From the IMG/VR virus record IMGVR_UViG_3300033153_006754, positions 1 to 63,727 of that record: a DNA stretch of 63,727 nt. The stretch is one strand, 5' to 3'. The DNA is from a virus. Below the pieces are notes generated by a model. It saw only the letters and a list, made by a program, of their open reading frames with translations, was not told the origin of the DNA and searched no databases. The first letter of the stretch is position 1. Each line of letters opens with the position of its first letter. A program made the position numbers and the translations under genes. Shown here in pieces: positions 39,569-50,210 of this stretch.

Positions 39569-42500
39569 CTATGCTGCCCTTGCTGCCATACGGGAACGGT
39601 TGCGATCTAGCTTGGGAACACTGTTCATGCCAGAGTAGCGTTCGATAACACTTCTAACGCGACTACCACGTCGTTGGTTCCACAGTACATTATTAACTAA
39701 CCCAAAGGTCGGTGTAAACATAGATATTGGCCGGCCGGCCTTCGGACTCGAGGTGATCTTCCGCTTGCTCTCTGTTATCTGCAGAGTTTTTGAATCAATA
39801 TCCTGACCCTGTATTGGGTTGTAGGCACCACCGAATGGAGTCATGTCCGGGCGTGCAGGATCCATACCATGGAACCTGTTGAACTGGTTCACAGGACCAC
39901 GCATACCCTGGATGCCACCCATCTGGTAGAGCATGGCAGGATCCATACTCATGCTAGGATCAGGATTGCGGCGCTTGCGTGCACCTAGTACTGCAGCTGT
40001 TGGATACCTTACTGCTGTAGCAGCAACTTCACCAAGAACAAAAGATCCAACAAGGTTGATGACCGCCGAACCAACGAATCCAAGTATTGCCCCACCAATC
40101 GTACCAGCAGGGCCAAGAGCAGAACCTGCAGCAGCAAGCTTGGCACCAGCTGCCAGCCAGAGACCAGGTCTGATCAAAGCGAAGGCGGCCATTCGAGCAG
40201 TACCAGCAGCAGTCTCAGTAATGAAACCCTTTGTGGCATTCTCGTATTGATCCATCAGGGAGTAACCTTCGATAGCACCCCAGGCAACGTTCATGTATGG
40301 AATCTTGCCAAGAGCTCTGCCAACGCCACTCTTGCCAAACTTGCTGATACTGGAACCAACCTTGGTAAGCCGCCTCATCTTGTCTACATGTGCGGTGAAC
40401 AATGGACTGTTCTTGTTGATGTCCTTTAAGCGCTTGCCTATGTTGGTGAAGACATTCTTGACTTCCTTCTTTGCCAGGAGTGACTTCTTGTCTATGACCC
40501 TGTAGGCAAGAGCCATTTCCTCCAGGCGGCCGAAGTTGGTGATGATATCTTTTACACCGGTCACCTTGGCCATGAAGCCCTGCGGGTTGGTGACAAGATT
40601 CTTGACATTCTCACTCAGAGCATGTGTGAACTGATCCCAGGCCAGGATCTTTTTGGCACCAACGAGTTTGTTTAGCTTACCCATCTTCTTCAGGCGTTGG
40701 ATCTCGTTGGCGTCAACTCCGTATGTCCAATGCTTGGACTTTGTGGCAATGCTCTTGAACCAATCCTTGACGTTGCCACTGGCATCCTTAGTTAGTTTGC
40801 TCTGCTTACTTTCGATGTAGTCCCACAGCTTCCCAGGTGCTTCTTTGATGGACTCCCAGGAGAACTTCTTGAGTATCTTGTCGAACCACCCGAGCTTGGT
40901 ATCTGCAACACTGGCTATGTTGGTGATGAACGAGGTGCTCATCTTGCGACGTCTCATCCATGCGTGTCTGGACATCTGGTCATACTTCATTGCCTTGAGA
41001 CCAGCTTTTACCTTTTTGCCAGCAACCTTACTTTCCCTCAACTGGTTCGGCGTCAACGTTTCAGCTGGGTCCAGGAGATGACCTGCCTTAACGAATGAGT
41101 CCCAGGCCTCGAGCATTGGATGCTTGTTAGGAGCCAAATAGCGCTCGAGGCCCATTACAACACCCTGCAGACCAAGGTGCTTCAGAGCCTCCCGCTTGTG
41201 GGCAGAGGCTGCCTCTTCAGCTGCCACACCCATGTTCTGGTGCTGGGCCCAGGCTCCAACCTTGTGGCTGGCTACGAAGTCTCCATGCGGCCGCATTCCC
41301 ATGAACTCCCGCGGGTGCCGCGGTGTGTCCATCATCCGCTCGCCGATGCCTTGCTCATCACCCTTGAGCATAGCCCAGGTGCCAATTGCGACTCCGGTAA
41401 GAACCAGAGCTCCAATGCCAGCAGCAGGACCAATACCGTGGTACCTGGATGAGGATGACTTCATGCCTGAGCTGGGTGGCACTGGAACATTGCGCGCCGG
41501 GATGGACCGGTCAACCACCTTGATAGCTTTGGGTGGTTTCGCTGTTGTGGTTGGTGTTGGCTTGCGTGTTGGTGACTGTGGTGGTTTGGCATGTTGTGCC
41601 TGGGCAGCATCATCCACTTGCTCAAGGTAAGCGTCCACATCATTGACATAGAAGCCATGGCCACCGTCTTTGTAGGTCTGGAATATGACGTCCCTGGCCT
41701 TGGCATCAGGGTATGCAGCAAGGGTACGTTTCGGGGTGTCAATGACCCTGTATTTACCAGTGGTGCTACTGTGTACGTACAGCTCACCAGTGCCTGTGTA
41801 TATGGGACCTACACCCTTACCCATGTTTACGGGAGTGGTGCGATGCAGGTCTGGTCTGGTACCCGATTCACCAGGATAATGGTTCACTGCTTGTGTAAGG
41901 TCAGGTCTGGTACCTGCACCCAACGGATCGGCACTGACCGGAGCACTCGGTAGCATCGGGGATGTGACTGCAATTGGAACAGACGTAGCGTTCAGATTGT
42001 TGACCGTGGTGTTCCATATGGTACGTGAATCAATTGGAGAAGATCCGTACCTCTCATTCACTGCTGACTGTACAGCAGTGATCTTGGCTCGGCCGGACGA
42101 GAAGTCAGAGACGTTGCCACCACGAACCTGAGTTGGCGTGATGCCAGATCCAACGATACTCCATGGAGTTACTGGACCACGGATGCCAGGCAGGAAGCCG
42201 GCGTTCTTGGTGCGCTTGTTTAGCCGGCCCATGGTCTCGGCCCTGTATGCCGAGCCGACCTGATACATGTCCTGGACTTCATCTGGAGTCCATGGTGAAC
42301 GGCTGCTGTCATGAGCGCGCTGGACCAGGCCATACCAATCGGACAACGCTGCACTACGCGTAATCCTGTCCAGGGAGGTCATGGTGGTGTTGGTGACCCT
42401 CTTGCCTGCAATGAGCCCCATGGCCCGGTGCATCTGCCAGCCCTTGGACTGCCACATGCCAATCTTGCCAGAGGCGGCTAGGGCTTCAGCACTAGCGTAG

Positions 42501-43750
42501 GCGTTGTGGTCAACGATCTGCCTCTTCCGACTCTGCCAGGGCAGAGCGGCAGCAGCACCACCACGAACCAGTTGGAGGTTAAGATTGGCGCGCCGATCGC
42601 CGATGAGCACGCCTACATGCCTGTTATAACTTCGTGAGCTAGGATCAAATACAAGCCGGAGGCTCTGCTGACGCTCGATCAGGTGCTCGAAGTACTCAGC
42701 ACCCTGCTTGCCAGCAAATTGATCCTCAGCTATACGCCCGGACATGCCCGGGTGCTCAACTTCAGGAGCATCGATGCCAGCCAGCCTGATGCTGACCGGC
42801 TTCTTGAACATGTTCATCAAGCCGCGGCGCTTGACAGTGATGGAGTCAGCATCGCTGACCTTAACGTGGTAGTTCTTCAGGTCGACCACGCCCATCCAGG
42901 CACTGCGGTTCAGCCCGGCTGTCTTGAGCCAGGAGCCCCTGGCCATGTCGTACTCACCGCGATGGAACAGCCGCCTGTTGGCGGACATCATCGCGCTGGT
43001 CCAGGTCTCGTGGCTCTTCTCAAGACTCTTGTAGCTTACACCGTCAATATCCGGGTATCGGATGTCGAGTGAGGACCTGTAGGCTGATAGTTCGTTGAAT
43101 CCTCTGGTGACAGGGTTCCCGAACCTGCGTCCGGACCCAAAGTCAGTCAGAGCTCGAGCTACACCACGGCCGCAGGGCCCGAAGCTGATGCCGTCAACCT
43201 CAAGGTAAGGCGAGTCACTGGGATCTCTAACACCCTTGAGCCTGGCCTGCTTCTCTGGTAGAGCAGCATCAGCTATGGTCATCCCGGCCAGAACCATGGC
43301 TGCAGCACGCAACTTCGGATGCCTGTTAAACCAGGGCTTATACTGGGTCCTCCAGGCGTCAGATATCTCGGCGCCGGCACGACTGTATATCTTCCTGAGT
43401 GTCTCTGGCTGACTGGCTAATGCGCGAGCTGTCGTCTTGGCACCAACGCGCTGGGCACTTATCTTGCTGGATAATGTTTTATCCAGAGATCTAAGTCTGT
43501 GGGATTCAGACCTGGTGACTTCGGTTGCCTTTTGGACTGGGTTTTTGATTGCAGGAGTTGGCTGTGTAGCAGCACGCAGATCCTGACGCATCTTCCTGAA
43601 GTACGTCTTCATTGCAGAAGTTAGACGCGCAGGGGAAGGTTCGGTACTTTGACTCTGGCGTGCCTTCTTTAAGTACTCCCTCACTGCCTTGACAACGCCT
43701 GGGCTGGGCTTTTGATAATCAGCCAACTGCCACTTCCTGCTCTTTAGCAC
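39569..43750 (-). CDS. Giant virion protein with an embedded SNase (thermonuclease) domain
   Basis: 1393 residues, GTG start overlapping the end of a 48-residue gene. Residues about 288-430 form a staphylococcal-nuclease-like domain: SDADSITV (Asp300, Asp302), RLAGIDAPE (Arg322, Asp327, Glu330) and YNRHVG (Arg377) match the calcium and catalytic positions of the family. A Pro/Thr-rich linker (around 720) leads to a hydrophobic segment (GIGALVLTGVAIGTWAML); later Gly/Ala-rich hydrophobic stretches lie near 1210-1290. Probably carried in the virion and ejected, where the nuclease could degrade host DNA or RNA. Confidence 0.75.
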   Translation of the reverse strand: MLKSRKWQLADYQKPSPGVVKAVREYLKKARQSQSTEPSPARLTSAMKTYFRKMRQDLRAATQPTPAIKNPVQKATEVTRSESHRLRSLDKTLSSKISAQRVGAKTTARALASQPETLRKIYSRAGAEISDAWRTQYKPWFNRHPKLRAAAMVLAGMTIADAALPEKQARLKGVRDPSDSPYLEVDGISFGPCGRGVARALTDFGSGRRFGNPVTRGFNELSAYRSSLDIRYPDIDGVSYKSLEKSHETWTSAMMSANRRLFHRGEYDMARGSWLKTAGLNRSAWMGVVDLKNYHVKVSDADSITVKRRGLMNMFKKPVSIRLAGIDAPEVEHPGMSGRIAEDQFAGKQGAEYFEHLIERQQSLRLVFDPSSRSYNRHVGVLIGDRRANLNLQLVRGGAAAALPWQSRKRQIVDHNAYASAEALAASGKIGMWQSKGWQMHRAMGLIAGKRVTNTTMTSLDRITRSAALSDWYGLVQRAHDSSRSPWTPDEVQDMYQVGSAYRAETMGRLNKRTKNAGFLPGIRGPVTPWSIVGSGITPTQVRGGNVSDFSSGRAKITAVQSAVNERYGSSPIDSRTIWNTTVNNLNATSVPIAVTSPMLPSAPVSADPLGAGTRPDLTQAVNHYPGESGTRPDLHRTTPVNMGKGVGPIYTGTGELYVHSSTTGKYRVIDTPKRTLAAYPDAKARDVIFQTYKDGGHGFYVNDVDAYLEQVDDAAQAQHAKPPQSPTRKPTPTTTAKPPKAIKVVDRSIPARNVPVPPSSGMKSSSSRYHGIGPAAGIGALVLTGVAIGTWAMLKGDEQGIGERMMDTPRHPREFMGMRPHGDFVASHKVGAWAQHQNMGVAAEEAASAHKREALKHLGLQGVVMGLERYLAPNKHPMLEAWDSFVKAGHLLDPAETLTPNQLRESKVAGKKVKAGLKAMKYDQMSRHAWMRRRKMSTSFITNIASVADTKLGWFDKILKKFSWESIKEAPGKLWDYIESKQSKLTKDASGNVKDWFKSIATKSKHWTYGVDANEIQRLKKMGKLNKLVGAKKILAWDQFTHALSENVKNLVTNPQGFMAKVTGVKDIITNFGRLEEMALAYRVIDKKSLLAKKEVKNVFTNIGKRLKDINKNSPLFTAHVDKMRRLTKVGSSISKFGKSGVGRALGKIPYMNVAWGAIEGYSLMDQYENATKGFITETAAGTARMAAFALIRPGLWLAAGAKLAAAGSALGPAGTIGGAILGFVGSAVINLVGSFVLGEVAATAVRYPTAAVLGARKRRNPDPSMSMDPAMLYQMGGIQGMRGPVNQFNRFHGMDPARPDMTPFGGAYNPIQGQDIDSKTLQITESKRKITSSPKAGRPISMFTPTFGLVNNVLWNQRRGSRVRSVIERYSGMNSVPKLDRNRSRMAARAA

Positions 43751-45722: not shown

Positions 45723-45748
45723 GGTACACGGGCTGTGTGAGATGTCAA
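45721..45748 (-). promoter_or_regulatory. Promoter at the end of the tRNA array
   Basis: Minus strand TTGACA, 16-base spacer, TACCAT. It belongs to the same family as four other promoters here (TTGACT, 16 bases, TAnnnT). The -35 box overlaps the last base of the tRNA-Thr gene. It would drive the zinc ribbon gene and perhaps the virion operon. Confidence 0.6.
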
Positions 45749-45820
45749 GCCCCCGGCCGGCATCGAACCAGCGACCTACGGTTTACAAAACCGTCGCTCT
45801 CCCAACTGAGCTACGGAGGC
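45748..45820 (-). tRNA. tRNA-Thr(TGT)
   Basis: Complete cloverleaf: acceptor GCCTCCG with CGGGGGC, D-arm GCTC/GAGC, anticodon stem ACGGT/ACCGT with loop TTTGTAA, T-arm GCTGG/CCGGC. No CCA is encoded; the 3' flank is TGACA. Last gene of the array in the direction of transcription. Confidence 0.95.
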
Positions 45821-45823
45821 ATA

Positions 45824-45897
45824 TGGTGGGGCTGGAAGGAATTGAACCCTCGACATTGAGGTTCGTAGCCTCACGTCCCGAGTCCACGGGCAACCCC
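45824..45897 (-). tRNA. tRNA-Arg(ACG), unusual D-arm
   Basis: Acceptor GGGGTTG with CAGCCCC, anticodon stem TGAGG/CCTCA with loop CTACGAA, T-stem GAGGG/CCTTC, CCA encoded. The usual T at position 8 is C and the D-stem shrinks to about three pairs (CGT/ACG), so folding or modification may be atypical. Confidence 0.85.
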
Positions 45898-45901
45898 GAT
45901 C

Positions 45902-45977
45902 TGGTACGCCCGGAGGGATTCGAACCCCCAACAACCGGTTTAGAAAGCCGGTACCCATCCAATTGGGACTCGAGCGC
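45902..45977 (-). tRNA. tRNA-Arg(TCT)
   Basis: Acceptor GCGCTCG with CGGGCGT, anticodon loop TTTCTAA in a CCGG/CCGG stem, T-arm GGGGG... with loop TTCGAAT, CCA encoded. The pair closing the anticodon loop is a C-A mismatch. Confidence 0.9.
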
Positions 45978-46053
45978 TGGTATCCCCGGAAGGACTCGAA
46001 CCTTCATTCCAGGATTAGGAATCCTGTGTCCTGTCCGTTTGGACGACGGAGAC
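45978..46053 (-). tRNA. tRNA-Arg(CCT)
   Basis: Acceptor GTCTCCG with CGGGGAT, D-stem GTCC/GGAC, anticodon stem CAGGA/TCCTG with loop TTCCTAA, T-stem GAAGG/CCTTC, CCA encoded. It directly abuts the preceding tRNA gene. Confidence 0.95.
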
Positions 46054-46129
46054 TGGCACTGCGAGAAGGACTCGAACCTTCAACCGCCAGGTTCGGAACC
46101 TGGTGCTCTATCCGTTGAGCTACCGCAGT
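46054..46129 (-). tRNA. tRNA-Arg(CCG)
   Basis: Acceptor ACTGCGG with TCGCAGT, D-stem GCTC/GAGC, anticodon stem CCAGG/CCTGG with loop TTCCGAA, CCA encoded. Fourth Arg isoacceptor in a row, giving cover of CGG codons. Confidence 0.95.
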
Positions 46130-46200
46130 TGGCAGGCCGTCGAGGTGTCGATCCCCGCTGGCGGGGGTTGGAGTCCCACCTGATCGCCGGATCACAGCCT
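46130..46200 (-). tRNA. tRNA-Trp(CCA), degenerate
   Basis: Acceptor AGGCTGT with ACGGCCT and an encoded CCA are clear; T-stem CGGGG/CCTCG is paired but the T-loop starts with A (ATCGACA). The anticodon arm reads CTCCAAC with a mismatch at the loop-closing pair, and the D-region is shorter than normal. The only Trp candidate in the array; it may be weak or a pseudogene. Confidence 0.6.
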
Positions 46201-46203
46201 ACA

Positions 46204-46275
46204 TAGATCTCCGAGGAGTCGAACCCACAACCTACTGGCTCAAAACCAGCCGTGCTACCATTACACCAGAGATCC
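46204..46275 (-). tRNA. tRNA-Gln(TTG)
   Basis: Acceptor GGATCTC with GAGATCT, D-arm GTG/CAC around TAATGGTA, anticodon stem GCTGG/CCAGT with loop TTTTGAG, T-stem GTGGG/CCTCG. No CCA encoded (ATGT follows). Confidence 0.95.
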
Positions 46276-46351
46276 TGGTAGGGGTGGAAGGGTTCGAACC
46301 TTCGACCTCTTGAGTCAGAGTCAAGCGTTCTACCAGTTGAACTACACCCCT
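46276..46351 (-). tRNA. tRNA-Gln(CTG)
   Basis: Acceptor AGGGGTG with CACCCCT, D-stem GTTC/GAAC, anticodon stem CTTGA/TCAAG with loop CTCTGAC, T-stem GAAGG/CCTTC, CCA encoded. Its 5' end lies immediately after the permuted tRNA-like element. Confidence 0.95.
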
Positions 46352-46427
46352 ATTTGCCGGCGTTCTGCCAGTTAAACTATGCCAAGGTTTCCCTCGGCAG
46401 TCGGGTTCGAACCGACACTTCCGGCGC
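46352..46427 (-). ncRNA. Circularly permuted tRNA-like RNA with GAAA-closed acceptor stem
   Basis: On the minus strand the 3' half of a tRNA comes first and its 5' half second. Order: GCCGG (anticodon stem 3' strand), AAGT, T-stem GTCGG, loop TTCGAAC, CCGAC, TGCCGAGG, GAAA, CCTTGGCA, TA, D-stem GTTT with GAAC, G, CCGGC (anticodon stem 5' strand), AAAT. All four stems pair: the 8-bp acceptor TGCCGAGG/CCTTGGCA is capped by GAAA, and the 5-bp anticodon stem CCGGC/GCCGG is perfect but is open where the anticodon loop would be. It lies exactly between the CCA of tRNA-Pro and the 5' end of tRNA-Gln, so normal processing of neighbours would release it. No anticodon is present. Confidence 0.8.
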
Positions 46428-46506
46428 TGGTCGGGCCAGGAGGATTCGAACCTCCGGTCTCCTGCTCCCGAAGCAGGCGGCAACGGCCAAGCTTGCCCAT
46501 GGCCCG
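46428..46506 (-). tRNA. tRNA-Pro(CGG)
   Basis: Acceptor CGGGCCA with TGGCCCG, D-stem GGCA/TGCC, anticodon stem CCTGC/GCAGG with loop TTCGGGA, T-stem GGAGG/CCTCC, CCA encoded. Confidence 0.95.
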
Positions 46507-46584
46507 TGGTCGGGCGAGGAGGATTCGAACCTCCGATTTCCGGTCCCCCAGACCGGCGTCCACTCCAAACTGGACCGCCGCCCG
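46507..46584 (-). tRNA. tRNA-Pro(GGG)
   Basis: Acceptor CGGGCGG with TCGCCCG, D-stem GTCC/GGAC, anticodon stem CCGGT/ACCGG with loop CTGGGGG, T-stem GGAGG/CCTCC, CCA encoded. Confidence 0.93.
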
Positions 46585-46588
46585 ATAA

Positions 46589-46667
46589 TGGTCGGGGTGA
46601 CTGGATTCGAACCAGCGAATCTCCTGCTCCCAAAGCAGGCGCCCTGGCCAGGCTGGGCTACACCCCG
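46589..46667 (-). tRNA. tRNA-Pro(TGG)
   Basis: Acceptor CGGGGTG with CACCCCG, D-stem GCCC/GGGC, anticodon stem CCTGC/GCAGG with loop TTTGGGA, T-loop TTCGAAT, CCA encoded. With the two preceding genes it completes a Pro set. Confidence 0.95.
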
Positions 46668-46669
46668 TT

Positions 46670-46745
46670 TGGCTCCCCAGGTGGGGTTCGAACCCACAAC
46701 CTCCCGGTTAACGGCCGGGCGCTCTTCCACATGAGCTTCCGAGGA
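46670..46745 (-). tRNA. tRNA-Asn(GTT)
   Basis: Acceptor TCCTCGG with CTGGGGA, D-stem GCTC/GAGC, anticodon stem CCCGG/CCGGG with loop CCGTTAA, T-stem GTGGG/CCCAC, CCA encoded. Confidence 0.95.
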
Positions 46746-46749
46746 TCAC

Positions 46750-46823
46750 TGGAGCCACCGGGTGGAATCGAACCACCATTTCATCCTTACCAAGGACGTG
46801 TTCTGCCGTTTAACTACGGCGGC
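46750..46823 (-). tRNA. tRNA-Thr(GGT)
   Basis: Acceptor GCCGCCG with CGGTGGC, anticodon stem CGTCC/GGATG with loop TTGGTAA, T-stem GGTGG/CCACC, CCA encoded. One D-stem pair is non-canonical. Confidence 0.93.
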
Positions 46824-46826
46824 TTA

Positions 46827-46890
46827 TGGAGCGGGGACTGAAGCCGGTGCCAGCCCCAGAGATTAAGTCCCAGGATCGAGGGAGCCCCGC
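46827..46890 (-). ncRNA. Degenerate tRNA-like element
   Basis: A 64-base gap-filler between two tRNAs. Acceptor-like ends GCGGGGC and TCCCCGC with encoded CCA, and a D-arm-like TCCC/GGGA stem are visible, and a CTTAATC string recalls an anticodon loop (TAA). But there is no normal T-arm, and the remaining bases prefer an alternative GGGGCTG/CAGTCCCC hairpin. Probably a decayed tRNA-Leu or a tRNA-derived structural RNA. Confidence 0.45.
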
Positions 46891-46964
46891 TGGAGCCATC
46901 GGCCAGAATCGAACTGGCGTCTGCTGAGTACGAAACAGCTATTCTGCCCCTGAACTACGATGAC
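46891..46964 (-). tRNA. tRNA-Thr(CGT)
   Basis: Acceptor GTCATCG with CGATGGC, D-stem GTTC/GAAT, anticodon stem GCTG/CAGC with loop TTCGTAC (loop-closing T-T mismatch), T-stem GCCAG/CTGGC, CCA encoded. Confidence 0.9.
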
Positions 46965-46974
46965 AGTAGGAAGG

Positions 46975-47061
46975 TGGCGGAAGACGTAGGAGTCGAACCT
47001 AATGCCTCTCGACACGATCCGGTTAGCAACCGGTCCCCAGTCCACACCGAGTTCATCTTCC
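46975..47061 (-). tRNA. tRNA-Ser(GCT)
   Basis: Class II tRNA of 87 bases with a long variable arm. Acceptor GGAAGAT with GTCTTCC, anticodon stem CCGG/CCGG with loop TTGCTAA, T-loop TTCGACT, discriminator G and CCA encoded. Confidence 0.93.
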
Positions 47062-47138
47062 TGGAGACCCCGGTCGGACTCGAACCGACTAAGGTAGGGT
47101 TTGCAATCCTACGCCTCGTCCACTTCGGCATCAGGGCC
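47062..47138 (-). tRNA. tRNA-Cys(GCA)
   Basis: Acceptor GGCCCTG with CGGGGTC, D-arm GCC/GGC, anticodon loop TTGCAAA in a TAGG/CCTA stem with a mismatched loop-closing pair, T-stem GTCGG/CCGAC, discriminator T and CCA encoded. Confidence 0.92.
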
Positions 47139-47228
47139 TGGCGGTGGGCGGAGGAGTCGAACCCCTGTCATATTTCAGACCGCACGGCTTTCGAGGCCGC
47201 CCCCAGTCCAACACCGGGGTCACCCACC
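47139..47228 (-). tRNA. tRNA-Ser(CGA)
   Basis: Class II tRNA with long variable arm. Acceptor GGTGGGT with GCCCACC, D-stem CCC/GGG, anticodon stem GCGGC/GCCGT with loop CTCGAAA, T-loop TTCGACT, discriminator G, CCA encoded. Confidence 0.93.
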
Positions 47229-47236
47229 ATAACAAA

Positions 47237-47323
47237 CGGCAGGGCTGGGATTCGAACCCAGGAGACCTCTCAGTCTACACGCTTTCCAAGCGAGCGCTTT
47301 CAGCCGGACTCAGCCACCCTGCC
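47237..47323 (-). tRNA. tRNA-Ser(GGA)
   Basis: Class II tRNA. Acceptor GGCAGGG with CCCTGCC, anticodon stem CTCGC/GCGTG with loop TTGGAAA, T-stem CTGGG/CCCAG, discriminator G. No CCA encoded. It is the first tRNA behind the structured RNA at 47324-47530. Confidence 0.93.
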
Positions 47324-47530
47324 AGTAGGGTAATAGGTAGGAGAGGCCTCGTCTGGCCTCCCTTCTCCGAGTGCCTTATGATCGGCAACACGAAGAGGGG
47401 AAACTTCGCGCATTGGGCCAGCGCCGGGTCGTTCGACCCAGCTGCTGTCTCCTTCGTTGGAGTGTTGTGCGAAGCATCGAGAACCTCTTATTGCGTACCG
47501 GCGCTAAAGGCCGGCGATGAATATATTCTC
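47324..47530 (-). ncRNA. Structured non-coding RNA in the tRNA array (copy A)
   Basis: A 207-base stretch without tRNA or open frame starts at a family promoter (47531-47558) and ends against tRNA-Ser. Visible pairings: a long-range perfect 8-bp stem AGCGCCGG/CCGGCGCT (47420-47427 with 47498-47505), a GGGTCG/CGACCC palindrome, a 7-bp CGCGAAG/CTTCGTG hairpin, and a final hairpin with GGAGGCC/GGCCT-CTCC arms. Could be a leader, a small RNA, or a spacer with processing sites. Confidence 0.55.
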
Positions 47531-47558
47531 AGTGTACAGATGCCGAGAACGAAGTCAA
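47531..47558 (-). promoter_or_regulatory. Promoter within the tRNA array
   Basis: Minus strand TTGACT, 16-base spacer, TACACT. Same -35, spacing and nearly same -10 as the promoters at 49024, 50317 and 58091. Precedes a structured RNA and the Ser/Cys/Thr half of the array. Confidence 0.75.
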
Positions 47559-47569
47559 GTACTTTCTGA

Positions 47570-47643
47570 GGTGAACGGAGGGATTCGAACCCTCTCCTCG
47601 AGAGTCACAATCTCGTATGCTGACCACTTACACCACATTCAAC
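47570..47643 (-). tRNA. tRNA-His(GTG)
   Basis: Anticodon stem CGAGA/TCTCG with loop TTGTGAC; T-stem GAGGG/CCCTC. A G at position -1 opposite discriminator C is encoded, the histidine identity feature. No CCA encoded. The 1-72 pair is mismatched. Confidence 0.93.
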
Positions 47644-47718
47644 TGGTGACCCAGGCAGGAGTCGAACCTGCGTTAAGGAGTTATAAGCTCCCCGTTCTAG
47701 CCGTTGAACTACTGGGCC
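47644..47718 (-). tRNA. tRNA-Ile(TAT)
   Basis: Acceptor GGCCCAG with CTGGGTC, D-stem GTTC/GAAC, anticodon stem GGGAG/CTCCT with loop CTTATAA, T-stem GCAGG/CCTGC, CCA encoded. Anticodon TAT reads ATA; bacteria more often use a CAT anticodon with lysidine. Confidence 0.93.
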
Positions 47719-47762
47719 GCAACGTTCAGCTGCGGCTTGATATTCGTTCGTGTTCCATCTAT

Positions 47763-47832
47763 AGCGGGGAGGGGAATCGAACCCCCGAGACCAAGGTTAT
47801 GAGCCCCGGCTAAGCACCAACGCTTGCCCCGC
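47763..47832 (-). tRNA. tRNA with CAT anticodon (probably Met)
   Basis: Short 70-base tRNA. Acceptor GCGGGG with CCCCGC, D-arm AAGC/GCTT, anticodon stem CGGGG/CCTTG with loop CTCATAA, T-stem GGGGG/CCCCT. No CCA encoded, and C7-T66 is unpaired. The anticodon stem lacks the GGG/CCC pairs of initiator tRNA, so elongator Met is likelier; Ile2 is possible but a TAT Ile tRNA is present. A 44-base spacer lies on its 3' side. Confidence 0.8.
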
Positions 47833-47840
47833 GTCACTGA

Positions 47841-47913
47841 TGTCCTCGCTGGGATTCGAACCCAGACTCGACTGTATTTAAGACAGCTGGCTTTGCCGTT
47901 AGCCTACGAGGAC
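47841..47913 (-). tRNA. Class I tRNA with TAA anticodon
   Basis: Good cloverleaf: acceptor GTCCTCG with CGAGGAC, D-stem GGCT/AGCC, anticodon stem GCTGT/ACAGT with loop CTTAAAT, T-stem CTGGG/CCCAG, discriminator A. No CCA. The anticodon TAA would read TTA (Leu), yet there is only a five-base variable loop, whereas the other Leu tRNAs here have long variable arms. The amino acid is therefore uncertain. Confidence 0.88.
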
Positions 47914-47926
47914 AGCTGATTCCTGC

Positions 47927-48010
47927 TGGTACCGGAGACAGGATTCGAACCTGCAAGCCTTTCGGCGGTGCGTTCTGAGCGCACTGCGTTTACCATTTCA
48001 CCACTCCGGC
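47927..48010 (-). tRNA. tRNA-Leu(CAG)
   Basis: Class II, long variable arm. Acceptor GCCGGAG with CTCCGGT, anticodon stem GTGCG/CGCAC with loop CTCAGAA, T-loop TTCGAAT, CCA encoded. Confidence 0.95.
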
Positions 48011-48095
48011 TGGTGCCCAGGGTGGGAGTCGAACCCACAAGCCGCAAGGCACATGGCTCTCAACCATGCGTGTTTACCTGTTTCACCACCTGGAC
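48011..48095 (-). tRNA. tRNA-Leu(GAG)
   Basis: Class II. Acceptor GTCCAGG with CCTGGGC, anticodon stem CATGG/CCATG with loop TTGAGAG, T-stem GTGGG/CCCAC, CCA encoded. Confidence 0.95.
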
Positions 48096-48099
48096 ATTC

Positions 48100-48184
48100 T
48101 GGTACGGAAGGTGAGATTCGAACTCACACGCCTTGCGGCACAGAGGTTTGAGCTCTGCGCGTCTACCTGTTCCGCCACTCCCGC
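48100..48184 (-). tRNA. tRNA-Leu(CAA)
   Basis: Class II. Acceptor GCGGGAG with CTTCCGT, anticodon stem CAGAG/CTCTG with loop CTCAAAC, T-loop TTCGAAT, CCA encoded. Confidence 0.95.
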
Positions 48185-48187
48185 TAC

Positions 48188-48259
48188 TACGGCCACGGAG
48201 AGTTGAACTCCGGTCTCCGGGGTGAAAACCCGGTATCCTTGCCACTGGACGACAGCCGC
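48188..48259 (-). tRNA. tRNA-Glu(TTC)
   Basis: Acceptor GCGGCTG with TGGCCGT (several G-T pairs), D-stem GTCC/GGAT, anticodon stem CCGGG/CCCGG with loop TTTTCAC, T-loop TTCAACT. No CCA encoded. Confidence 0.93.
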
Positions 48260-48262
48260 TCA

Positions 48263-48334
48263 TACCCCTACAGAGAGTCGAACTCTGGTCTGCTGGATGA
48301 GAACCAGCTATCCTTGCCACTAGACGATAGGGGC
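48263..48334 (-). tRNA. tRNA-Glu(CTC)
   Basis: Acceptor GCCCCTA with TAGGGGT, D-arm as in the TTC isoacceptor, anticodon stem GCTGG/CCAGC with loop TTCTCAT, T-stem CAGAG/CTCTG. No CCA encoded. Confidence 0.94.
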
Positions 48335-48412
48335 TGGTAGGCCCGGTCGGACTCGAACCGACATGACCCCTGCGTGTAAAACAGGTGCTTGGCCAAGTTA
48401 AGCTACGGACCT
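48335..48412 (-). tRNA. tRNA-Val(TAC)
   Basis: Acceptor AGGTCCG with CGGGCCT, D-stem GCTT/AAGC, anticodon stem CCTGT/GCAGG with loop TTTACAC, T-stem GTCGG/CCGAC, CCA encoded. The only Val tRNA seen. Confidence 0.94.
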
Positions 48413-48416
48413 ATGC

Positions 48417-48477
48417 GGAAGCGTCACCGGACTACGCACGTGTGGAAGCACGGAACGTAGCACCCGGCTCAGCTTCC
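48417..48477 (-). ncRNA. Long nested hairpin between tRNA genes
   Basis: A 61-base spacer folds as one rod: GGAAGC/GCTTCC, then CCGG/CCGG, CTACG/CGTAG and CGTG/CACG around a small loop. It replaces a tRNA in size and spacing, between tRNA-Val and tRNA-Asp, but has no D- or T-arm. Possibly a processing signal or remnant. Confidence 0.55.
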
Positions 48478-48553
48478 TGGCGGGACTCACGGGGATCGAA
48501 CCCGCAACCTCCGGATCGACAGTCCGGCGCTCTTCCAATTGAGCTTCAGTCCC
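48478..48553 (-). tRNA. tRNA-Asp(GTC)
   Basis: Acceptor GGGACT with AGTCCC (7-66 mismatch), D-stem GCTC/GAGC, anticodon stem CCGGA/TCCGG with loop CTGTCGA, T-loop TTCGATC, discriminator G and CCA encoded. Confidence 0.94.
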
Positions 48554-48558
48554 GTTTC

Positions 48559-48634
48559 TGGTGGATAACGGTGGGACTCGAACCCACAACTCCTGGGTGC
48601 AAACCAAGTGTGTTCCCAATTACACCACGCTCCC
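48559..48634 (-). tRNA. tRNA-Ala(TGC), bulged acceptor stem
   Basis: Anticodon stem CTTGG/CCAGG with loop TTTGCAC, T-stem GTGGG/CCCAC, CCA encoded. The 5' acceptor strand GGGAGCG has seven bases but the 3' strand CGTTATCC has eight; all seven pairs form if one A bulges, and this places a G3-T pair at the alanine identity position. A second tRNA-Ala(TGC) follows. Confidence 0.85.
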
Positions 48635-48711
48635 TGGTGGACCCTGTCAGAGTCGAACTGACCGCCTCCTGCGTGCAAAACAGGCGCTCTACCCAGATGA
48701 GCTAAGGGCCC
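48635..48711 (-). tRNA. tRNA-Ala(TGC)
   Basis: Acceptor GGGCCCT with AGGGTCC, including the G3-T70 pair of alanine tRNAs, D-stem GCTC/GAGC, anticodon stem CCTGT/GCAGG with loop TTTGCAC, CCA encoded. Confidence 0.96.
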
Positions 48712-48722
48712 ATATGTAGTAT

Positions 48723-48797
48723 TGGTAGCCCCGGAGGGAGTTGAACCCTTCGTTTGCGGTTTATCAGACCGCTGTTCTGCCGTTGAACTACGGAGCT
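48723..48797 (-). tRNA. tRNA-Ile(GAT)
   Basis: Acceptor AGCTCCG with CGGGGCT, D-stem GTTC/GAAC, anticodon stem GCGGT/ACCGC with loop CTGATAA, T-loop TTCAACT, CCA encoded. Confidence 0.95.
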
Positions 48798-49020
48798 TCT
48801 TAGTTGAGGTCTCGAGGAAGTTTGGAGAAGACTTGCGGGAGACCTCAGCGTCGGTTACGCCGCGATCTCCATAATATCCAGAACGGCGGCGCCCACGACG
48901 ATGTCGTGTTCTAGGTGAAGTCGTATGTGTAACTTCTGCCGCTGCACTTCTGGTCTCCAGTTATAGGGGACGCCGGCACGGGGTCTTTACAGCCCGTACC
49001 GACGTCAGGTTCGATCCGTA
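48798..49020 (-). ncRNA. Structured non-coding RNA in the tRNA array (copy B)
   Basis: About 220 bases between a family promoter (49024-49051) and tRNA-Ile, with no tRNA and no open frame of note. It holds a chain of hairpins: a 14-bp stem (48969-48982 with 48993-49006) whose loop starts CTGTAAA, the Tyr anticodon loop sequence; CTGG/CCAG; GAAGT/ACTTC; CACGAC/GTCGTG; GCCGC/GCGGC; and GAGGTCTC/GAGACCTC. Same arrangement as copy A: promoter, structured RNA, then tRNAs. Confidence 0.6.
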
Positions 49021-49021
49021 T

Positions 49022-49309
49022 TTAGTGTACGGATGCCAGCACAAAAGTCAAGTTCAATCTGCCAACTTTTACTGTCTCGCCGTCAATCACCTTCCGGAAC
49101 AGCCGTGGCTTGTTCTTCTTCACTTGGCTGGTGCTGGGGAAGAGGCCCAGCTCAACTAGAGCTCGAGCTAAGAATGACTCGTCTGTTCGCACAATCATAT
49201 CTGCCTTCGGTAAGGTGTTGTTGTTAAGGATCCCCTTCACGAGCATGATCGCTTCGCGTACGGGGAGCTCCCATGATGCAACTACTGCTGGCTGTAAGAT
49301 CTCAATCAT
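49022..49309 (-). CDS. Small protein in the tRNA array, weakly S4-like
   Basis: 95 residues. The C-terminal half (FLARALVELGLFPSTSQVKK then a VKVGRLNLTF end) faintly recalls S4-type RNA-binding domains (LV-GL-S--V pattern), the kind found at the end of tyrosyl-tRNA synthetases, but with no decisive residue. Position inside a tRNA array makes RNA binding attractive. No close ribosome binding site (GGTGTGG region of the adjacent tRNA lies upstream), so expression level may be low. Confidence 0.55.
   Translation of the reverse strand: MIEILQPAVVASWELPVREAIMLVKGILNNNTLPKADMIVRTDESFLARALVELGLFPSTSQVKKNKPRLFRKVIDGETVKVGRLNLTFVLASVH
49024..49051 (-). promoter_or_regulatory. Promoter for structured RNA and tRNAs
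   Basis: Minus strand TTGACT, 16-base spacer, TACACT, identical in boxes and spacing to the promoter at 47531. It overlaps the 3' end of the 95-residue gene. Confidence 0.75.
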
Positions 49310-49386
49310 TGGTGTGGGTACAGGGATTCGAACCCTGACTGCCAGCTTGGAAGACTGGCGTGCTGGCCGTTGAACACTACACCCAC
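49310..49386 (-). tRNA. tRNA-Gly(TCC)
   Basis: Acceptor GTGGGTG with TACCCAC, D-arm GTG/CAC, anticodon stem CCAGT/GCTGG with loop CTTCCAA, T-stem CAGGG/CCCTG, CCA encoded. Confidence 0.94.
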
Positions 49387-49410
49387 AAATTCAAGGGACT
49401 GCATTAGATC

Positions 49411-49620
49411 TCATTCAACCACTTCCAGTATAGCCTCGAGCCCTGATCCTTCTGGGCTGAGCTTGACTAAAGGCCTGGACCTTATGACCTCAGCAATCTC
49501 ATCAGTGATATCGGGACCACCGATCTCACAAGTACCGTCCGGTCCTGTCTTGGCCGTGATGAAACCGTCCTTGAGCTTGATGAAGAACGTTGCCATTGGA
49601 GTGCCTATGGAAACTTTCAT
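49411..49620 (-). CDS. Small acidic protein in the tRNA array
   Basis: 69 residues: MKVSIGTPMATFFIKLKDGF, then an acidic, mainly beta-to-helix sequence ending LEAILEVVE. Not recognised. A strong extended -10 (49656-49664) lies 36 bases upstream. The small size and place among tRNAs suggest an accessory regulator; no function can be read from the sequence. Confidence 0.6.
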   Translation of the reverse strand: MKVSIGTPMATFFIKLKDGFITAKTGPDGTCEIGGPDITDEIAEVIRSRPLVKLSPEGSGLEAILEVVE

Positions 49621-49655
49621 TAGAGGCCCTCAAAAAGGTTATTGATCTATTGGAC

Positions 49656-49664
49656 ATTATATCA
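49656..49664 (-). promoter_or_regulatory. Extended -10 promoter
   Basis: Minus strand TGATATAAT: a perfect TATAAT with an upstream TG. There is no clear -35 because the tRNA-Lys gene lies there. It would drive the 69-residue gene and following tRNAs. Confidence 0.6.
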
Positions 49665-49669
49665 ACTAA

Positions 49670-49743
49670 TGCCCCCGGTAGGATTCGAACCTACATCTAT
49701 CCGGTTAAAAGCCGGATGTTCTACTCCATTGAACTACAGAGGC
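49670..49743 (-). tRNA. tRNA-Lys(TTT)
   Basis: Acceptor GCCTCTG with CGGGGGC, D-stem GTTC/GAAC, anticodon stem TCCGG/CCGGA with loop CTTTTAA, T-stem GTAGG/CCTAC. No CCA encoded (ATTA). Confidence 0.94.
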
Positions 49744-49745
49744 TC

Positions 49746-49820
49746 TGGTGGGCCGAAAGAGATTTGAACTCTTATCTAACGGATTAAGAATCCGTCGCTC
49801 TACCATTGAGCTATCGACCC
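49746..49820 (-). tRNA. tRNA-Lys(CTT)
   Basis: Acceptor GGGTCGA with TCGGCCC, D-stem GCTC/GAGC, anticodon stem ACGGA/TCCGT with loop TTCTTAA, T-loop TTCAAAT, CCA encoded. Confidence 0.95.
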
Positions 49821-49827
49821 ATGCTGA

Positions 49828-49898
49828 TGCGGGCAGATGGAGTCGAACCACCGTCGACTGTGATCAGCAGTCTGCTCTACCACTGAGCTATACCTCAC
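49828..49898 (-). tRNA. tRNA-Ile(GAT), second copy, bulged acceptor stem
   Basis: Anticodon stem GACTG/CAGTC with loop CTGATCA, D-stem GCTC/GAGC, T-stem GGTGG/CCATC. The 5' acceptor strand GTGAGGTA has eight bases against TGCCCGC; all pairs form if one A bulges. No CCA encoded. Distinct from the Ile(GAT) at 48723. Confidence 0.85.
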
Positions 49899-49982
49899 TG
49901 GTGCGCCGGGTTGGAGTCGAACCAACACAGTACTAGACGGGTGGGTTACAGCCACTTGAGCTCACCAATGCTCAGCCGACAC
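49899..49982 (-). tRNA. tRNA-Tyr(GTA)
   Basis: Class II with long variable arm. Acceptor GTGTCGG with CCGGCGC, D-stem GAGC/GCTC, anticodon stem GTGG/CCAC with loop CTGTAAC, T-stem GTTGG/CCAAC, CCA encoded. Confidence 0.94.
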
Positions 49983-50056
49983 TGGTGGGCCGAGATGGAA
50001 TCGAACCATCATTACCGCATCTTCAGTGCGGCGCTCTACCACTGAGCTACCGACCC
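49983..50056 (-). tRNA. tRNA-Phe(GAA)
   Basis: Acceptor GGGTCGG with TCGGCCC, D-stem GCTC/GAGC, anticodon stem CCGCA/TGCGG with loop CTGAAGA, T-stem GATGG/CCATC, CCA encoded. Confidence 0.95.
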
Positions 50057-50059
50057 AGA

Positions 50060-50130
50060 AGCGACTGGAGAGAATCGAACTCTCGTGTCCAGCTTGGGAA
50101 GCTGACGCTTTACCACTAAGCTACAATCGC
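50060..50130 (-). tRNA. tRNA-Gly(CCC)
   Basis: Acceptor GCGATTG with CAGTCGC, D-stem GCTT/AAGC, anticodon stem TCAGC/GCTGG with loop TTCCCAA, T-stem GAGAG/CTCTC, discriminator T. No CCA encoded. Confidence 0.94.
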
Positions 50131-50136
50131 GTTAGT

Positions 50137-50210
50137 TGGTGTGGCTGGCGAGAATCGAACTCGCATTGCCTGCGTGGCGGGCAGGTATCTTACCGTTGGA
50201 TCACAACCAC
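50137..50210 (-). tRNA. tRNA-Gly(GCC)
   Basis: First tRNA of the array. Acceptor GTGGTTG with CAGCCAC, anticodon stem CCTGC/GCAGG with loop CCGCCAC, T-stem GCGAG/CTCGC, CCA encoded. Its first four bases also belong to the 3' strand of the leader's 10-bp closing stem. Confidence 0.94.

What the first reader, a model, noticed from the sequence alone, without database searches (positions are those of the whole stretch)
46352..46427. Circularly permuted tRNA-like RNA closed by a GAAA loop in a phage tRNA array
The 3' half (T-arm) precedes the 5' half (D-arm). All stems pair: acceptor 8 bp capped by GAAA, D-stem 4 bp, anticodon stem 5 bp, T-stem 5 bp. It is opened exactly at the anticodon loop and fits precisely between mature ends of two normal tRNAs. 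Permuted tRNA genes are known from a few algae and archaea, where halves are joined by tRNA splicing enzymes; I know of none in phages. Without an anticodon it may be a decoy for enzymes that bind tRNA (RNase P, CCA-adding enzyme, anticodon nucleases), or a precursor that an RNA ligase would circularise.
Basis: partly seen in the sequence, partly recalled or inferred. Interest (0 to 1): 0.93.

Follow-up and report, generated by a model that had tools for sequence, protein, structure and literature searches.

The report
Ro-free Y-RNA-like module in tRNA array
A phage tRNA gene cluster contains, in the slot where one tRNA should be, an RNA that folds like a tRNA cut open at the anticodon and sealed at the amino-acid end; this is the tRNA-mimicking shape already known from bacterial Y RNAs, but here it stands alone among tRNAs without the usual Ro-protein handle, and similar stand-alone copies turn up in several unrelated phages.

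Summary
On the minus strand, 46352-46427 is a 76-nt circularly permuted tRNA-like unit: T-arm, 8-bp acceptor helix closed by GAAA, D-arm and 5-bp anticodon-type stem. It is flush with the CCA of tRNA-Pro(cgg) and the 5' end of tRNA-Gln(ctg). Chance is excluded: 0 of 609 adjacent tRNA junctions look like this, and the random-pair rate is 2.6e-4.

The architecture is not unprecedented. It is the tRNA-mimicking module of bacterial YrlA Y RNAs, described as circularly permuted relative to tRNA (PMC11472068), and I found many full Y RNAs of this type beside Ro/TROVE genes in phage contigs.

The window unit differs from them. It has no Ro-binding stem and no TROVE gene in its record, and it occupies a tRNA slot. 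The same Ro-free arrangement recurs in other phages: L091 has 2 copies, L193 has 3 alternating with tRNAs, and cluster M mycobacteriophages carry one after tRNA-Asn. In cluster M, 8 base pairs show two-sided compensatory changes.

Maturation into a decoding tRNA is unlikely: a ligated loop would be 6 nt without U33. My best reading is a stand-alone tRNA mimic released by processing of its neighbours. Decoy function is inferred, not shown. New variant of a known kind.

The parts
46352..46427 (-). whole permuted tRNA-like unit (76 nt)
46421..46425 (-). GCCGG, 3' strand of the anticodon-type stem (pairs with 46356-46360)
   Evidence: 5/5 pairs
46400..46416 (-). T-arm: GTCGG TTCGAAC CCGAC
   Evidence: aligned to Rfam YrlA positions 30-81
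46392..46399 (-). TGCCGAGG, 3' strand of the acceptor-type helix
   Evidence: 8/8 pairs with 46380-46387
46388..46391 (-). GAAA tetraloop closing the acceptor-type helix (no free CCA end)
46380..46387 (-). CCTTGGCA, 5' strand of the acceptor-type helix
46362..46377 (-). D-arm: GTTT AACTGGCA GAAC
46356..46360 (-). CCGGC, 5' strand of the anticodon-type stem
46352..46355 (-). AAAT 3' tail of the unit; with the 5' GC (46426-46427) all that is left of an anticodon loop
46428..46506 (-). upstream neighbour tRNA-Pro(cgg), ends with encoded CCA at 46428
46276..46351 (-). downstream neighbour tRNA-Gln(ctg), 5' end at 46351; RNase P cleavage here would set the unit's 3' end (inferred)

Best explanation
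The unit is a stand-alone version, without a Ro-binding stem, of the tRNA-mimicking module of YrlA-type Y RNAs, carried as one slot of a phage tRNA array. Shown: the permuted tRNA-like fold, its flush position, the lack of a Ro stem and of a TROVE gene in the record, recurrence of the arrangement in other phages, and compensatory base-pair changes in homologous copies of cluster M mycobacteriophages. Inferred: the RNA is cut out by maturation of its neighbours (RNase P at tRNA-Gln sets its 3' end, 3' maturation of tRNA-Pro sets its 5' end), stays an L-shaped RNA with a capped acceptor end and no anticodon, cannot be charged, and acts by occupying enzymes that bind the tRNA elbow (tRNA-modifying enzymes, PNPase, or tRNA-cleaving defence nucleases).
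For: Geometry and chance tests. The Rfam YrlA model aligns exactly to the T-arm/capped acceptor/D-arm part, positions 30-81 of 114. Published: the YrlA module (PDB 6CU1) superposes on tRNA with a circular permutation (PMC11472068) and is a substrate for DusA and TruB (PMC8394870). Flanking sequence cannot form a Ro stem, and no TROVE is found in the window record. Other copies flush with tRNA ends: L091 x2, L193 x3. None of the embedded-type records has TROVE, against 25 of 37 other module-bearing record groups (Fisher P = 0.001). Non-circular covariation in cluster M phages found by flank homology: 98% of cells paired, 8 pairs with changes on both sides, 0 of 500 shuffles.
Against: No close relative of the window's own unit was found, so covariation was shown for the class, not for this copy. 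The Rfam YrlA score (11.6-16.5 bits, cut-off 69) is no better than that of ordinary tandem tRNAs in the same array (up to 23.8). All metagenome records may be fragments, so a TROVE gene could lie outside. Stable RNA and any decoy function are untested. The cluster M copies abut a tRNA on one side only, so they are an imperfect match to the window's arrangement. The three L193 copies each have one imperfect helix or pair.
Confidence: 0.55

Rival explanations
1. A neutral remnant: tandem duplication of a tRNA followed by loss of the outer halves leaves 3'half-spacer-5'half, with no function.
For: Explains the origin economically. The array holds other aberrant slots (46130-46203, 46824-46890, 48413-48477). 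The two halves resemble tRNAs of the same array, the 5' half most of all the adjacent tRNA-Gln.
Against: Perfect 8-bp and 5-bp helices persist. Similar units recur in unrelated phages, three in a row in L193. In cluster M phages homologous copies keep pairing through two-sided changes.
Confidence: 0.18
2. A processing punctuation element: a tRNA-shaped spacer that helps nucleases cut the polycistronic tRNA transcript at its neighbours, with no role in trans.
For: Copies lie flush between mature tRNA ends (window, L091, L193), and in L193 they alternate with tRNAs.
Against: Most tRNAs in the same arrays are adjacent without any such spacer, and the capped acceptor lacks the free end that tRNA 3' processing needs.
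Confidence: 0.15
3. A true permuted tRNA gene: the ends are ligated across the anticodon loop and the GAAA cap is opened to give a working tRNA, as in algae and archaea.
For: The order of halves is as in permuted tRNA genes, and the break lies in the anticodon loop.
Against: The joined loop would be AAAUGC, 6 nt with A at 33. There is no bulge-helix-bulge partner in the flanks (mature tRNA ends). Neither RtcB (PF01139) nor RNA_ligase (PF09414) was found in the window record. The remaining end sequences in other copies differ and do not make regular 7-nt anticodon loops.
Confidence: 0.06
4. A complete Y RNA that tethers a Ro/Rsr protein.
For: The module is the YrlA module, and full Y RNAs with Ro genes are frequent in phages.
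Against: There is no basal stem: both flanks are mature tRNAs. No TROVE in the record.
Confidence: 0.04

Closest known systems
YrlA-type bacterial Y RNA (Rfam RF02553; structure PDB 6CU1)
   Same: Same order T-arm, tetraloop-capped acceptor-type helix, D-arm; circularly permuted relative to tRNA (PMC11472068)
   Different: The window unit lacks the Ro-binding basal stem and a neighbouring Ro gene, scores far below the Rfam cut-off, and sits as a slot between two tRNAs
Circularly permuted tRNA genes of algae and archaea
   Same: 3' half precedes 5' half, separated by a short linker
   Different: Those carry splice motifs and mature to tRNAs with a regular anticodon loop; here the ends abut mature tRNAs and the joined loop is irregular
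Two-piece (permuted) tmRNA
   Same: Permuted tRNA-like gene order (from general knowledge)
   Different: The window unit has a full D-stem and anticodon-type stem and no tag reading frame
Ordinary phage tRNAs of the same array
   Same: Sequence of the arms, zero-spacing packing in the array
   Different: Halves swapped, acceptor end closed, no anticodon, no CCA

Membership tests
YrlA Y RNA | permuted tRNA-like module with capped acceptor helix | tested here: met
   published shape
YrlA Y RNA | basal stem that binds Ro/Rsr, formed by flanking sequence | tested here: not met
   flanks are mature tRNA-Pro and tRNA-Gln; few pairs possible across them (4.4 expected pairs, against about 17-32 for most Y RNAs)
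YrlA Y RNA | Ro/TROVE gene nearby | tested here: not met
   PF05731 absent from the 63.7-kb record; the record may be incomplete
YrlA Y RNA | score above the Rfam RF02553 gathering cut-off | tested here: not met
   11.6 bits alone, 16.5 in context, cut-off 69
YrlA Y RNA | binds PNPase / modified by tRNA enzymes | not testable with these tools
   needs biochemistry
circularly permuted tRNA gene | 3' half before 5' half with both sets of arms complementary | tested here: met
circularly permuted tRNA gene | ends rejoin to a regular 7-nt anticodon loop with U33 | tested here: not met
   AAAU + GC = 6 nt, A33
circularly permuted tRNA gene | bulge-helix-bulge splice motif in the flanks | tested here: not met
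   by inspection, flanks are the CCA of tRNA-Pro and the first bases of tRNA-Gln, not complementary
circularly permuted tRNA gene | circular intermediate and mature tRNA in cells | not testable with these tools
   needs RNA-seq of infected cells

The most novel reading that the evidence does not exclude
Phage tRNA arrays contain a distinct class of small RNAs, free of Ro: stand-alone permuted tRNA mimics with a sealed acceptor end and no anticodon, released by tRNA processing and used to bind host tRNA-directed enzymes, for example as decoys against anticodon nucleases.
Probability: 0.3. Interest if true: 0.8.

Novelty: new variant of a known kind. Interest (0 to 1): 0.58.

Why it matters
The tRNA-mimicking half of YrlA has, as far as I know, been studied only as part of Ro-bound Y RNAs. 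Finding it alone, packed among tRNAs in several phage groups and kept by compensatory changes, separates the mimic from the Ro handle and suggests that the mimic itself is useful to phages. Copies in sequenced isolates that grow on M. smegmatis (Rey, MrMagoo, Aziz) make this directly testable. It also warns that tRNA finders skip such slots: ARAGORN and Rfam leave this one blank.

Tried and rejected
(1) Natural permuted intron-exon (group I) origin for the flanked copies: considered because the flanks were conserved; rejected when the flanks proved to be Y-RNA stems next to Ro genes, and Rfam found no group I intron there.
(2) Permuted tmRNA: rejected, because the unit has a D-stem and an anticodon-type stem.
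(3) Chance juxtaposition of two unrelated tRNA halves: rejected.
(4) Direct relatives of the window unit: none found in the phage records, nor with the pattern of its exact geometry in viral contigs. One terminase relative (L002, 69% identity) does not reach the array.
(5) The first pattern was miscounted by one base for the window's own geometry; it still revealed L022/L034/L038, and one search repeated it with the right spacing.
(6) Rfam YrlA bit scores as a membership test are uninformative here, since tandem tRNAs score as high.
(7) Covariation over all scanner hits was not used, because the scanner selects for pairing; only homologous cluster M loci found through their flanks were counted.

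Full report
What is there. The interval lies in an array of at least 35 tRNA genes, all on the minus strand, 45748-50210. Read on that strand, 46427 to 46352 is GC-GCCGG-AAGT-GTCGG-TTCGAAC-CCGAC-TGCCGAGG-GAAA-CCTTGGCA-TA-GTTT-AACTGGCA-GAAC-G-CCGGC-AAAT. The unit starts right after the CCA of tRNA-Pro(cgg) and ends right before the first base of tRNA-Gln(ctg). It is one slot in a nearly gapless stretch of the array.

Is it chance? No. The folding z-score is -4.6. Zero of 3000 dinucleotide shuffles pass a strict scan for the layout, and random strands of the same composition form both diagnostic helices about twice in a million. The sharper null is the neighbourhood itself: in a tandem tRNA array, the 3' half of one tRNA always precedes the 5' half of the next. 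Among 609 distinct adjacent tRNA junctions from the loci fetched, none has acceptor 7/7 and anticodon 5/5 complementarity, and random pairs from 1676 tRNAs do so at 2.6e-4. The single-sequence MFE prefers a different pairing of the D and T arms by 4 kcal/mol, but 10 of 11 ordinary neighbouring tRNAs tested also have an MFE that differs from the cloverleaf.

What it resembles. Pattern scans of viral contigs and a purpose-written scanner found many other units with the same layout. In most, conserved flanks form a long stem. BLAST showed that such arrays sit next to 'Ro-like RNA binding protein' genes of mycobacteriophages, and TROVE was found in 29 of the 47 records checked. These are Y RNAs of the YrlA type. 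Published work states that YrlA has a Ro-binding stem plus a tRNA-like domain that is a substrate for DusA and TruB (PMC8394870), that this domain superposes on tRNA with a circular permutation (PMC11472068), and that phages have been reported to carry it (PMC7765460). So the shape is known, also in phages. The original Y-RNA papers (Chen et al. 2014; Wang et al. 2018) were not in the library and are known to me from memory or through others.

What is different here. The window unit has no Ro stem, because its flanks are mature tRNAs. There is no TROVE gene in the record. The Rfam YrlA model matches only the tRNA-like part, far below cut-off. The same Ro-free, tRNA-embedded arrangement occurs elsewhere. 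L091 (135-kb record) has two copies, one between Phe and Pro and one between Pro and Ala. L193 (152 kb) has three alternating with Ala, Ala, Pro and Pro tRNAs, each with one imperfect helix or pair. Weaker cases, abutting a recognised tRNA on one side, are L075, L093 and L031. None of these records has TROVE. Taking one record per group, embedded copies have TROVE in 0 of 7 and other modules in 25 of 37 (Fisher P = 0.001), with the caveat that records may be fragments and that grouping was done by hand.

Isolated phages. The modules in L123 and L127 belong to cluster M mycobacteriophages (MrMagoo, GardenSalsa, Estes, GenevaB15, Aziz, Reindeer, Rey), three nucleotides after the ARAGORN-called tRNA-Asn in L123 and L127. 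Their downstream side is not a tRNA, so they match the window's arrangement only in part. Bongo, PegLeg, Skinny and Nanosmite lack the module at this site. Because these loci were collected through their flanks and not by pairing, their alignment is a fair test of structure: 98% of cells form standard pairs, 8 of 21 pairs change on both sides, no shuffle of 500 reaches this, and slid controls fall to 50% or less. Reindeer, for example, has GTGGA/TCCAC where MrMagoo has GCGGG/CCCGC. No direct relative of the window's own copy was found.

How it may work. Joining the ends would give a six-base loop AAAUGC with A at position 33, and no regular anticodon loop appears in the other embedded copies read. 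Neither RtcB nor the RNA_ligase family was found in the window record; RtcB is present in the L123 and L127 records and RNA_ligase in L031. A working tRNA or a required circle is therefore unlikely. The capped acceptor leaves no end to charge. I think the most likely course is release by maturation of the two neighbours and use as a tRNA mimic that occupies tRNA-elbow-binding enzymes. Competitive inhibition of an anticodon nuclease has been suggested for the YrlA domain (PMC7790460). This step is inference. A neutral remnant or a processing spacer remains possible.

Verdict.

Noticed in passing
window 46130-46203 (-): A 74-nt slot missed by ARAGORN and Rfam, flush on both sides, folds as a cloverleaf in normal order with CCA but with a 9-nt anticodon loop, no U8-A9 spacer and an odd D-arm.
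   Followed up: partly
window 46824-46890 (-) and 48413-48477 (-): Two further aberrant slots in the array: a truncated three-way junction with TCCA near its end, and a 65-nt two-helix rod with folding z-score -3.6.
   Followed up: partly
window 47325-47567 (-) and 48798-49309 (-): Two array gaps carry similar promoter-like stretches, TTGACT...GGCATC(T/C)GTACACT; a pattern search with a guessed spacing found neither, so this rests on reading.
   Followed up: partly
L130, L253, L277, L281: YrlA-like modules with a different conserved flank motif (about TWACAGCAA) and a basal stem in most, but no TROVE match in records of 4 to 148 kb; perhaps Y RNAs with another or diverged partner protein.
   Followed up: no
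L022, L034, L038: An HNH (endonuclease VII-like) reading frame starts just downstream of a YrlA-type module (read by eye).
   Followed up: no
L065, L043, L106, L097, L111: Several tandem Y-RNA-like permuted modules appear in one phage.
   Followed up: partly
window 39569-43750 (-): A 1393-aa protein carries a staphylococcal-nuclease-like domain.
   Followed up: no
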